Positions 8,196-10,845 of a stretch of 64,000 nucleotides of DNA are shown piece by piece. The DNA is from Streptomyces sp. 1-11 (GTDB lineage Bacteria; Actinomycetota; Actinomycetes; Streptomycetales; Streptomycetaceae). Within the stretch, counting starts at the first letter, position 1. Each line of letters begins with the position of its first letter. The notes below the pieces were generated by a model, which saw only the letters and a list, made by a program, of their open reading frames with translations, had not been told where the DNA came from and made no database searches. Where the stretch lies: NCBI RefSeq assembly GCF_007176755.1, contig NZ_BJTV01000001.1, forward strand, positions 186,001 to 250,000, in the 5' to 3' direction. Made by a program: the position numbers and the translations under genes.

Positions 8196-9326
8196 TCAGC
8201 TGCTGCGCCGGGTCACGAACTCGGCCAGGGCCAGCAGCCCGCCCGCCGACTCCGGCGCGGGGACGGCACGGGCCAGTTCCTGCACCGCCCGGGCCATCCG
8301 GTCGGCCGCCTCGGCCTGCGCCCAGTCCCGGCCGCCGGCCCGCTCGACCGCCAGGGCCGTACGGGCGATCTCCCCGCCGTCCCCGTCCTCCCCCTCGGTG
8401 TACGGCTTCCCGTACAGCGCGGCGAGTTCGGCCCCCGCCGGGGTGCCGGAGGTCAGGGCCGCCACCACCGGCAGGGACTTCTTGCGGACGGCGAGGTCCG
8501 CACCGGCCGGCTTGCCGGTGCGCAGCGGGTCCCCCCATATGCCGATCACGTCGTCGATCAGCTGGAAGGCGAGCCCGGCCTGGCGCCCGAAGCCGTCGAG
8601 CGCCGCCACCTCCTCCTCCCCCGCGCCCGCGTACAGTGCGCCGAGCGCGCAGGCGCAGCCCAGCAGCGCCCCGGTCTTCGCCTCGGCCATGACGAGCACC
8701 TCGTCCAGGGTCACCTCCTCGGGAGCGCGCCGTTCCAGGGCGGTGTCGGTGTGCTGCCCGGCGCACAGCTCGACGACGCAGTCGGCGAGCCGGGCGGCGG
8801 CCTGCCCGGAGACCGGGTGCGGATCCGCGGCGAGCAGCCGCAGGGCCAGCGCCTGCAGGGCGTCCCCGGCGAGGATCGCGTCCGCGTCGCCGAACACCGT
8901 CCAGGCCGTGGGCCGGTGTCTCCGGGTGGCGTCCCGGTCCATCACGTCGTCGTGCAACAGCGTGAAGTTGTGGATCAGTTCGACCGCCACGGCCGCCCGG
9001 ACGGCCGCCGCTGCCGCTCTCGGTCCGCCGAGCGCCGCGGCCGCGGCGAGGACGAGGGCCGGCCTGATCGCCTTGCCCGCGTTGCCCGCCGCCGGCGTGC
9101 CGTCCGCGTGCTCCCAGCCGAAGTGGTAGCGGGCGATCCGGCGCATCGAGCCGGGCAGCGACTCGACGGCCGCGCGCAGTTCCGGGTCCACGACGGCCCG
9201 GGTCCGCTCCAGCAGGGCCGTCGCCTCCTGCCCGTCGGGCGGGCCGGCCACGGCGCCGCCGGTGGACTCGCGCGGTGCACGCGGTCCGGGTGCGCGCTGT
9301 CTGGTCTCCGTCATGAAATCGGCCAT
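8196..9326 (-). CDS. Polyprenyl (all-trans) diphosphate synthase, likely encapsulin-associated
   Basis: A 376-aa isoprenyl diphosphate synthase that condenses isopentenyl diphosphate onto an allylic primer. The family motifs are GKAIRPALVL near residue 84, the first Asp-rich motif DDVMD at 126-130, and the second motif as DDVIGIWGD, where the usual fifth Asp is Gly. The first ~36 residues (Pro/Gly/Ala/Arg rich) look disordered and extend beyond the catalytic fold. In family 2 encapsulin systems such N-terminal tails direct cargo into the shell. ATG 9326 follows GAGGGGGAG. It lies 112 bp downstream of eshA on the same strand, probably in one operon. Product chain length cannot be predicted. 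Confidence 0.9.
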   Translation of the reverse strand: MADFMTETRQRAPGPRAPRESTGGAVAGPPDGQEATALLERTRAVVDPELRAAVESLPGSMRRIARYHFGWEHADGTPAAGNAGKAIRPALVLAAAAALGGPRAAAAAVRAAVAVELIHNFTLLHDDVMDRDATRRHRPTAWTVFGDADAILAGDALQALALRLLAADPHPVSGQAAARLADCVVELCAGQHTDTALERRAPEEVTLDEVLVMAEAKTGALLGCACALGALYAGAGEEEVAALDGFGRQAGLAFQLIDDVIGIWGDPLRTGKPAGADLAVRKKSLPVVAALTSGTPAGAELAALYGKPYTEGEDGDGGEIARTALAVERAGGRDWAQAEAADRMARAVQELARAVPAPESAGGLLALAEFVTRRSS

Positions 9327-9438
9327 GGCTCCCCCTCGTGACACCCACGGACGACGGCTGTTCCGCCCCGGAGCGACGCATACCCCGGGGATGTACCCGC
9401 CCCGGAGGGCGGGGACACGGCGGCGCGGTGCGCGGACG

Positions 9439-10845
9439 TCACCTCCACCGGCCGATCTCGACGTTCTCCAGCACGCCGAGCGCGTCCGGCACCAGGACGG
9501 CGGCCGAGTAGTACGCCGTCACCAGGTATTTGATGATCGCCTGCTCGTTGATGCCCATGAAGCGGACGGACAGGCTGGGCTCGATCTCGTCCGGGATGCC
9601 GGACTGCCTGAGGCCGATGACACCCTGGTCGGCCTCACCGGTACGCATGGCGATGATGGAGGTCGTGCGCTCGGGGGTGACGGGGATCTTGCTGCACGGG
9701 TAGATCGGCACGCCTCGCCAGGTGGGAATGCGGTTGCCGCCGATGTCGATGGTCTCCGGGACCAGGCCGCGCTTGTTCAGCTCACGCCCGAACGCGGCGA
9801 TCGCACGCGGGTGGGCGAGGAACAGCTTGGTGCCCCGCCGGCGGCTGAGCAGTTCGTCCATGTCGTCCGGGCCGGGCACACCGTCGTGCGGCTGGATCCG
9901 CTGGTCGTACTCGCAGTTGTGCAGCAGCCCGAAGTCCCGGTTGTTGACCAGCTCGTGCTCCTGACGCTCCTTCAGCGCCTCGACCGTCAGCCGCAGCTGC
10001 TGCTCGGTCTGGTTCATCGGCTGGTTGTACAGGTCGGCCACGCGCGAGTGGATGCGCAGCACGGTCTGGGCGATGCTCAGTTCGTACTCGCGCGGCCGGG
10101 CCTCGTAGTCGACGAAGGTGTGCGGGATGTCCGGCTCCCCGCTGTGGCCGGCCGCCAGCTCCACCTCCTTCTCACCGAACTTGTTGGTCCGCTGCTCCGG
10201 GATGGAGCGCAGCCGCCTGAGGTGTTCGCGCAGCGAGTCGGAGCGCTCGGCCACCTGCTCGAAGTCCTCACGGCCGAGGACCAGCACCGTGCACCCTGTG
10301 TCCGCCCGGGCCGTGTACTCCCAGATGGCGTCCGGGTCCAGCAGCGCCGCCTCGCCGAAGTACGCGCCGTCGGCGAGGACGCCTAGGACGGCGTCGTCCC
10401 CGTACGGGCCCGTGCCGATCTTCTCCACCCTGCCGTGGGCCAGCAGGTAGACCTTCTCGGTCCGGGCGCCGAAGGAGGCGATGACCTCTCCGGGCGCGAA
10501 GTTGCGCTGGCGGCAGCGCCGGGCCAGCTCGGCGAGGACCTCGTCGTCCTCGTACGACCGCAGCGCCGGCAGCTCACCGAGCTCGGCCGGGACGACCTCC
10601 ACCTGGTCCCCGGTCTTCACGAAGGTGATGCGGCCGTCGCCGACGGCGTACGTCAGCCGCCGGTTCACCCGGTACGTGCCGCCCTGGACGTCCACCCAGG
10701 GCAGTGTGCGCAGCAGCCAGCGGGAGCTGATCTCCTGCATCTGCGGAACGGACTTGGTGGTGGTGGCCAGGTTCCGCGCTGCCGCCGTGCCGAGAGACTG
10801 CTGCGGCTTGCCCTGCTCCGTGCGGACCTCTTCGCCTACCGACAT
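9439..10845 (-). CDS. eshA: EshA, family 2B encapsulin shell protein with cyclic-nucleotide-binding-like insert
   Basis: A 468-aa protein recognisable as EshA of Streptomyces. Family 2B encapsulins are HK97-fold proteins that self-assemble into icosahedral nanocompartments around cargo enzymes. The order is a flexible N-arm (1-45), an HK97 part, a CRP-like cyclic-nucleotide-binding-like domain (about 98-205, with FGEAALL at 163-169), and the remaining HK97 core ending in the conserved YLVTAYYSAAVLVPDALGVLENVEIGRW. In S. griseus and S. coelicolor EshA affects growth, ppGpp and antibiotic production. Trp175-Glu176 replace the Arg-Ser that grips cAMP phosphate in CRP, so classical cAMP binding is doubtful. 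ATG 10845 starts MSVGEEVR. It heads a two-gene unit with the polyprenyl synthetase. Confidence 0.95.
   Translation of the reverse strand: MSVGEEVRTEQGKPQQSLGTAAARNLATTTKSVPQMQEISSRWLLRTLPWVDVQGGTYRVNRRLTYAVGDGRITFVKTGDQVEVVPAELGELPALRSYEDDEVLAELARRCRQRNFAPGEVIASFGARTEKVYLLAHGRVEKIGTGPYGDDAVLGVLADGAYFGEAALLDPDAIWEYTARADTGCTVLVLGREDFEQVAERSDSLREHLRRLRSIPEQRTNKFGEKEVELAAGHSGEPDIPHTFVDYEARPREYELSIAQTVLRIHSRVADLYNQPMNQTEQQLRLTVEALKERQEHELVNNRDFGLLHNCEYDQRIQPHDGVPGPDDMDELLSRRRGTKLFLAHPRAIAAFGRELNKRGLVPETIDIGGNRIPTWRGVPIYPCSKIPVTPERTTSIIAMRTGEADQGVIGLRQSGIPDEIEPSLSVRFMGINEQAIIKYLVTAYYSAAVLVPDALGVLENVEIGRWR

What the first reader, a model, noticed from the sequence alone, without database searches (positions are those of the whole stretch)
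8196..10845. Encapsulin shell (EshA) with a co-encoded polyprenyl diphosphate synthase
EshA is a family 2B encapsulin and the gene directly behind it on the same strand (112 bp) is an isoprenyl diphosphate synthase with an extra disordered ~36-residue Pro/Gly/Arg-rich N-terminus, as expected for a cargo-loading tail. This suggests a nanocompartment that sequesters prenyl chain elongation. Family 2B shells with terpene cyclase or prenyl transferase cargo are known as a class; the chemistry of this pair is not established.
Basis: partly seen in the sequence, partly recalled or inferred. Interest (0 to 1): 0.78.

Follow-up and report, generated by a model that had tools for sequence, protein, structure and literature searches.

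The report
Encapsulin shell with prenyl-synthase partner
Two neighbouring Streptomyces genes match the family of a virus-like protein shell and of an enzyme predicted to build prenyl chains that is likely packed inside it; this pairing is already known as a class, and the enzyme's flexible tail, which was taken for the packing signal, is not conserved among its relatives, so it is unlikely to be that signal.

Summary
Observation confirmed. 9439-10845 (-) passes the NCBIfam model for Family 2B encapsulin shells (769 bits, cut-off 400); 8196-9326 (-), 112 bp downstream, passes the model for their polyprenyl-transferase cargo (489.1, cut-off 450). The pair is conserved: of 101 Streptomyces genomes, 76 hold both genes, 3 the shell only, 1 the synthase only, 21 neither; in 76 of 76 the synthase lies directly downstream. 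The class is published (900 PT operons, PMC8346489), so the system is not new. It is better called EshB-type than EshA. The tail argument fails: residues 1-30 are predicted disordered, but orthologues have 11 to 179 residues ahead of the same anchor, tail conservation is 0.16 against 0.84 for the rest, and 20 synthases without a shell have similar lengths. New lead: the tag of terpene-cyclase cargo (GPTGLGTSAAR) resembles the shell's own N-arm (SLGTAAARNLA): LGT[AS]AAR occurs in 55 of 96 shell, 13 of 41 cyclase and 0 of 48 synthase frames. The synthase is most likely cargo, loaded without that tag; loading, product and role are untested.

The parts
9439..10845 (-). Family 2B encapsulin shell protein, EshB type, 468 aa
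   Evidence: PF19307 and PF00027; NF041163 769 bits, cut-off 400; PDB 9bhu, 675 bits
10774..10797 (-). Shell N-arm motif SLGTAAAR (residues 17-24), shared with terpene-cyclase cargo tags
10243..10506 (-). Cyclic-nucleotide-binding-like domain inserted ahead of the main HK97 part of the shell
   Evidence: PF00027, residues 120-207 of the 474-aa frame; FGE..WEYTAR in place of a usual phosphate-binding Arg-Ser (by eye; canonical residues recalled)
9448..10200 (-). Main HK97-fold part of the shell protein
   Evidence: PF19307, residues 222-472 of the 474-aa frame
9327..9438 (-). 112-bp gap between shell and synthase genes
8196..9326 (-). Polyprenyl (probably geranylgeranyl) diphosphate synthase, putative cargo, 376 aa
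   Evidence: PF00348; NF041169 489.1 bits, cut-off 450; Foldseek best hit 3nf2
9237..9326 (-). Predicted disordered, unconserved tail, residues 1-30 of the synthase
   Evidence: pLDDT under 50; mean modal frequency 0.16 against 0.84
8937..8951 (-). First Asp-rich motif DDVMD (D126, D127, D130)
   Evidence: the three Asp invariant in 114 of 114 shell-linked synthases
8529..8555 (-). Second Asp-rich motif DDVIGIWGD (D258, D259)
   Evidence: the two Asp invariant in 114 of 114
10929..10953 (-). Conserved upstream element CCATTCCCG-N6-CGGGTAATGG, probable regulatory site
   Evidence: 3 or fewer mismatches upstream of 95 of 133 EshB-group shell copies and 0 of 63 other Family 2B shell copies

Best explanation
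The two genes encode a Family 2B (EshB-type) encapsulin shell and a polyprenyl diphosphate synthase of the matching cargo family, and the synthase is likely packed inside the shell by its folded body or its very ends rather than by its variable disordered tail. By analogy with solved 2B shells, 60 subunits would form a T=1 particle with the cyclic-nucleotide-like domains outside. The synthase inside would take up small isoprenyl diphosphates through the pores and elongate them, probably to C20. The tail then acts at most as a spacer. Shown here: the two genes, their family membership, their conserved adjacency, intact catalytic residues, and the lack of tail conservation and of the cyclase-type tag. 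Inferred: assembly, loading, loading surface, chain length and physiological role.
For: Shell and cargo models passed, the cargo model matching residues 36-375 only. Synthase present in 76 of 79 genomes with an EshB-group shell, adjacent and co-directional in 76 of 76; found in 79 of 80 named close loci, whereas the flanking amidase is found in 52 of 80 and TetR in 25 of 80 (part of the missing flanks are short loci). Shell-synthase distance correlation 0.82, partial r 0.62 given the amidase (71 loci; shell-amidase given the synthase is also 0.45). Catalytic residues invariant in 114 of 114. Adjacency also outside the genus (L207, L211, L218, L223, L224). The nearest PF19086 terpene cyclase lies about 21 kb away, and none of the three cyclases found with PF19086 in this genome carries an LGTxAAR tag. 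Published: PTs proposed as 2B cargo without a detectable tag (PMC8346489, passages); a 2B shell is T=1 with 14 x 60 A two-fold pores (PMC12407261, first part of section 9).
Against: No loading data exist in what I could search. The synthase lacks the motif seen in cyclase cargo. In G076 the synthase stands alone where the shell is missing, and in G006 the shell stands without it, so neither strictly needs the other. EshB-group shells that sit with cyclases (4 of 81 copies) show no fixed residue separating them from the other 125 EshB-group shells compared, so cargo choice is not visible in the shell. The folded-surface route rests mainly on excluding the alternatives.
Confidence: 0.55

Rival explanations
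1. The synthase works outside the shell: it supplies prenyl diphosphate, and the shell holds another cargo encoded elsewhere or is empty.
For: No cyclase-type tag in the synthases (exact motif in 0 of 48 frames, and 0 of 127 shell-linked proteins); synthase kept without the neighbouring shell in G076 and shell kept without synthase in G006.
Against: 76 of 76 adjacency; the three terpene cyclases found in this genome with PF19086 lack the tag; the cargo family model is passed.
Confidence: 0.25
2. One reading: the disordered N-terminal tail is the cargo-loading signal.
For: The tail is present here and predicted disordered; the first few residues (MAEFMTET or MTSTDAA) recur in many orthologues; disordered ends were proposed for other Family 2 cargos (PMC8346489, passages).
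Against: Tail positions 1-30 have mean modal frequency 0.16; 11-179 residues ahead of the anchor in 114 shell-linked and 15-176 in 20 unlinked synthases, p=0.08; in L197 and L199 fewer than 20 codons lie between the last shell codon and the anchor.
Confidence: 0.13
3. The genes are only neighbours by inherited gene order and have no common function.
For: Gene order can be inherited without function, and the genomes are not independent samples.
Against: The pair outlasts its flanks (synthase 79, amidase 52, TetR 25 of 80 loci), joint absence in 21 genomes, adjacency in other genera, partial distance correlation 0.62.
Confidence: 0.05

Closest known systems
Family 2B encapsulin operons with polyprenyl transferase (900 operons, PMC8346489; NCBIfam NF041163 plus NF041169)
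   Same: Same shell family with inserted CNBD-like domain, same cargo family directly downstream, same phylum; both curated models passed
   Different: Nothing categorical; the predicted disordered part here is about 30 residues, below the 50-100 published as typical, and it is not conserved
S. coelicolor EshB (SCO5249)
   Same: Named paralogue of EshA, putative cyclic nucleotide-binding protein, developmentally upregulated promoter (PMC3878966, passages)
   Different: Orthology is inferred from the two shell groups and from a nearby epi-isozizaene synthase (its S. coelicolor position is recalled); the EshB sequence was not compared here
S. griseus Family 2B encapsulin (PDB 9bhu; EshA by recall)
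   Same: About the same length and domain order, 675 bits, N-arm SLGTAAARNLA
   Different: Scores like the cyclase-linked group; its methylisoborneol-synthase cargo is recalled
S. lydicus two-component shells (PDB 9bix, 9bje; PMC12407261)
   Same: Family 2B shells; N-arm reads SL[DS]TAAAR
   Different: Two shell genes per operon; here a single Family 2 shell in the genome
S. coelicolor polyprenyl synthetase 3nf2
   Same: Best structural match, TM 0.94 by target length, 45% identity
   Different: Its first helix (LLERGRTLATPVLRAAVDRL) reads like the unlinked paralogue L006, not like the shell-linked synthase

Membership tests
Family 2B encapsulin shell | Family 2 HK97-fold shell sequence | tested here: met
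   PF19307 6.5e-137; NF041163 769 bits, cut-off 400
Family 2B encapsulin shell | Cyclic-nucleotide-binding-like domain inserted in the shell protein | tested here: met
   PF00027 7.4e-18 at residues 120-207, before the PF19307 match at 222-472
Family 2B encapsulin shell | Assembles into a closed T=1 shell | not testable with these tools
   Inferred from relatives 9bhu, 9bix, 9bje and PMC12407261
Family 2 polyprenyl-transferase cargo | Cargo family sequence next to a Family 2 shell | tested here: met
   NF041169 489.1 bits, cut-off 450; adjacency in 76 of 76 genomes with both
Family 2 polyprenyl-transferase cargo | Disordered N-terminal domain of 50-100 residues (PMC8346489) | tested here: inconclusive
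   Predicted disordered residues 1-30 here; 11-179 residues ahead of the anchor in orthologues, not conserved
Family 2 polyprenyl-transferase cargo | Found inside purified shells | not testable with these tools
   No report found in the held papers
Tagged 2B cargo of terpene-cyclase type | GPTGLGT(SAAR) tag in a disordered region | tested here: not met
   Exact LGT[AS]AAR in 0 of 48 synthase frames and 0 of 127 shell-linked synthases; 0 of 124 tails score 8 or more with the N-arm matrix; 2 of 122 whole synthases score 10 or more, both in the folded body
trans-Isoprenyl diphosphate synthase | Two Asp-rich motifs and basic substrate-binding residues (roles recalled) | tested here: met
   K85, R88, D126, D127, D130, R135, R136, K217, Q255, D258, D259, K272, K282 invariant in 114 of 114
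Geranylgeranyl (C20) chain length | Aromatic residue at position -5 before the first Asp-rich motif (recalled rule) | tested here: inconclusive
   F121 in 114 of 114 shell-linked and 18 of 20 unlinked synthases; IdsB GGPP model matched at 356.6 bits, below its cut-off 475
EshA proper (methylisoborneol-type shell) | Belongs to the cyclase-linked shell group | tested here: not met
   Gap between 72-100% and 68% or less identity; synthase-linked locus; but 4 of 81 copies in the 72-100% group do sit with cyclases
cAMP receptor | Phosphate-binding Arg and Ser in the cassette | tested here: inconclusive
   W175-E176 at the place of Arg-Ser, aligned by eye, canonical residues recalled; a study cited in PMC12407261 found no cyclic-nucleotide binding in a 2B shell (passage)

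The most novel reading that the evidence does not exclude
Family 2B shells recruit cargo by N-arm mimicry: cyclase tags copy the shell's own N-arm (LGTxAAR) and take its seat near the two-fold pore, so that loading and pore opening are coupled; the prenyl synthases of the EshB branch have no such tag and use a second, tag-free route into an almost identical shell.
Probability: 0.3. Interest if true: 0.65.

Novelty: already known. Interest (0 to 1): 0.42.

Why it matters
The EshB-synthase pair is found in 76 of 101 sampled Streptomyces genomes, yet I found no report on its cargo loading, product or role. The results weaken the obvious guess about loading (the tail) and give two testable statements: that short-tailed orthologues should load as well as long-tailed ones, and that cyclase cargo tags bind where the shell's N-arm sits. 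If the second holds, one peptide rule would explain cyclase loading in Family 2B encapsulins and give a defined tag for engineering terpene compartments.

Tried and rejected
Tail as conserved tag: rejected. A sub-clade motif such as RRGPIGTQ in some tails recalled GPTGLGT, but I saw it only in part of the close relatives, and the best score of the N-arm matrix in 124 of 127 tails (three under 8 residues left out) is 4.6, against 15 for typical cyclase tags. Residues that separate EshB-group shells sitting with cyclases from the rest: none found (4 against 125, of which a few have lost the synthase). Cyclase encoded in trans as tagged cargo: the three cyclases found in this genome with PF19086 (four domain matches) carry no LGTxAAR; of 14 one-mismatch DNA matches to the tag pattern, against 5 for the backward control, only the shell's own was placed, by its coordinates; the other 13 were not looked at. 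Upstream element as a clean palindrome: holds in close relatives, but beyond them mainly the right half (GTGTAATGG) is kept.

Weak points. Synthase start codons were picked by a Shine-Dalgarno rule that is wrong in some loci (for example L017, L080, L235). Before the 114, proteins under 340 aa, with internal stops or duplicates were dropped. The 20 unlinked synthases were chosen from the top non-orthologous hits, not at random. L024, L030 and L057 hold interrupted synthase frames and L027 and L079 are cut by contig or locus ends; all five are counted as present in the 79 of 80. G045 and G082 hold partial matches counted as present. The cuts for orthologues (783 bits shell, 366 bits synthase) were set after seeing the gaps in the lists; the lists are capped, but below these cuts. 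The Fisher p of 1.7e-17 treats related genomes as independent. The 133 and 63 shell copies hold some species twice, since named and unnamed collections overlap. In one search, 19 of 41 cyclase frames score 10 or more, 17 of them at an LG[TS] site and 2 not, and only 13 of 41 reach p of 0.01 or less with 100 shuffles. Three whole synthases scored 9.7 to 10.5, all in the body. Cyclase and shell frames were sorted by motif expressions, which missed at least four shells.

Full report
What is there. At 9439-10845 on the minus strand lies a 468-residue shell protein; 112 bp behind it, at 8196-9326, a 376-residue prenyl synthase. Pfam gives PF19307 (6.5e-137) with a PF00027 domain ahead of it for the first and PF00348 (2.7e-57) for the second. 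NCBIfam names both in the expected way: family 2B encapsulin shell (769 bits, cut-off 400) and family 2 encapsulin cargo polyprenyl transferase (489.1 bits, cut-off 450); the cargo match starts at residue 36, after the tail. The nearest solved shells are 9bhu, 9bix and 9bje.

Name. The genome holds one match to the Family 2 shell model and seven PF00348 loci. In S. coelicolor EshA is SCO7699, beside the methylisoborneol genes SCO7700 and SCO7701, and EshB is SCO5249 (passages of PMC5839063 and PMC3878966). In 101 Streptomyces genomes, shells fall into a group 72-100% identical to this one and a group at 68% or less. In the regions the Streptomyces shells of the second group sit beside terpene cyclases or in double-shell loci, with two (L153, L157) beside neither. 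The gene is therefore EshB-type. An epi-isozizaene synthase at 31612-32781 (NF045483, 697.5 bits, cut-off 675; PDB 3kb9, 675 bits) fits the S. coelicolor neighbourhood as I recall it (SCO5222), which was not checked.

Co-occurrence. In 101 Streptomyces genomes, the own one included (evaluated), 76 have both genes, 3 only an EshB-group shell (G006, G010, G051), 1 only the synthase (G076) and 21 neither. Where both occur the synthase lies directly downstream on the same strand in 76 of 76. Among 80 named close loci the synthase is found in 79, the amidase flank in 52 and the TetR flank in 25 (some loci are short). The exceptions are telling: in G076 the shell is absent between amidase and synthase; in G006 the synthase is absent between shell and TetR; in the metagenome-derived L036 the synthase is gone but for what looks, by eye, like its last codons. 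Of the 81 EshB-group shell copies, 76 have the synthase, 4 share their locus with a terpene cyclase (L160, L228, L229, L230) and 1 (G006) has neither in the ORFs seen; the cyclases were recognised by a motif and by start sequences that recall geosmin or methylisoborneol synthases. Distances of shell and synthase correlate at 0.82, and at 0.62 after removing the amidase's share (71 loci).

The tail. The tail is real and predicted disordered: residues 1-30 have pLDDT under 50, the first helix starts at 33. But it is not a conserved feature. In 114 shell-linked synthases the mean modal frequency is 0.16 over residues 1-30 and 0.84 over the rest; the number of residues ahead of the position that matches residue 39 (38 here) runs from 11 to 179; in 20 synthases without a shell it runs from 15 to 176 (Mann-Whitney p=0.08). 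In the branch with 72-79% identical shells 26 of 31 synthases have 10-19 residues ahead of the LLERTR anchor, for example MTSTDAATEGHEAAALLERTR, and in L197 and L199 fewer than 20 codons lie between the last shell codon and the anchor. Some long tails carry low-complexity repeats (L048, L170). In the own genome the unlinked paralogue L006 also has a Pro-rich stretch ahead of its core. The published survey had found no targeting motif in these synthases (PMC8346489, passages).

N-arm and cargo tags. The shells share an N-terminal motif, mostly SL[GSA]T[AS]AARNLA (96 shells). The proposed cargo tag of terpene cyclases is GPTGLGT or GPTGLGTSAAR (PMC8346489, passages). A matrix made only from shell N-arms finds that tag: 19 of 41 cyclase frames score 10 or more, 17 of them at an LG[TS] site, against 2 of 122 shell-linked synthases (both in the folded body) and 0 of 20 unlinked ones; 13 of 41 cyclase frames, 1 of 122 and 0 of 20 reach p of 0.01 or less with 100 shuffles. 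Scanned alone, 0 of 124 synthase tails score 8 or more. The exact string LGT[AS]AAR occurs in 55 of 96 shell frames, 13 of 41 cyclase frames, 0 of 48 synthase frames and 4 of 2374 other frames; all 4 read by eye as shell N-arms that my sorting rule missed. The nine NDLYSY-type cyclase frames among 14 looked at again keep GP[ST]G[LM]GT instead. In S. lydicus Enc1 the N-arm is either resolved or absent at the two-fold pore and changes that pore's size and charge (PMC12407261, first part of section 9). Mimicry of the N-arm by the cargo tag is thus a testable idea. Against it: in a Family 2A shell the N-terminus was reported to extend to the outside and cargo density lay at the three-fold axis (PMC8049743, passages). 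The only held paper with the string GPTGLGT does not draw this comparison in the passages I saw; the paper on the methylisoborneol encapsulin, known to me by recall, did not turn up in the held library.

The enzyme. All 13 substrate and metal residues checked are invariant in 114 of 114 (their roles are recalled). The best structural match is 3nf2 (TM 0.94 by target length), followed by 1wy0, a geranylgeranyl diphosphate synthase, and other isoprenyl synthases. F121, five residues before the first Asp-rich motif, is invariant, which by a recalled rule points to C20; it is also present in 18 of 20 unlinked synthases, so it does not mark the shell-linked ones. The IdsB GGPP model is matched below its cut-off (356.6 against 475 bits). 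Product and chain length stay a prediction.

Regulation. Upstream of the shell lies a conserved element at 10929-10953, found exactly once in the genome, where only two other sites have 3 mismatches, within 3 mismatches upstream of 95 of 133 EshB-group shell copies and 0 of 63 other Family 2B shell copies. In S. coelicolor the eshB promoter is up-regulated during development (PMC3878966), SCO5249 is listed with log2 values of 2.4 to 3.2 in a comparison of mycelial stages (PMC3610822), and it is a possible direct target of repression by AtrA (PMC13170358; all passages).

Verdict. A well-conserved member of a known class. The synthase is most likely cargo, by a route that uses neither the tail nor the cyclase-type tag. 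No experimental report of prenyl-synthase loading into a Family 2B shell turned up, which cover only the held open-access papers.

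Noticed in passing
31612-32781 (-): Epi-isozizaene synthase (NF045483 697.5 bits, cut-off 675; PDB 3kb9 675 bits), about 21 kb from the shell-synthase pair, without an LGTxAAR cargo tag.
   Followed up: partly
10929-10953 (-): Conserved element upstream of the shell gene; an inverted repeat in close relatives, mainly its right half kept in more distant ones; no exact second copy in the genome.
   Followed up: partly
L172, L190, L205, L227 and other cyclase loci: Terpene-cyclase cargo tags resemble the N-arm motif of the shells (LGT[AS]AAR).
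   Followed up: yes
L231 (G076), L156 (G006), L036: Natural one-gene states of the locus: synthase without shell, shell without synthase, and shell with only what looks like the last codons of the synthase.
   Followed up: partly
L048, L170, L018: Synthase tails enlarged to about 110-180 residues, with short amino-acid repeats.
   Followed up: no
L160, L228: EshB-group shells (74-79% identical) in one locus with geosmin-like cyclases, which suggests exchange of cargo genes between very similar shells.
   Followed up: partly
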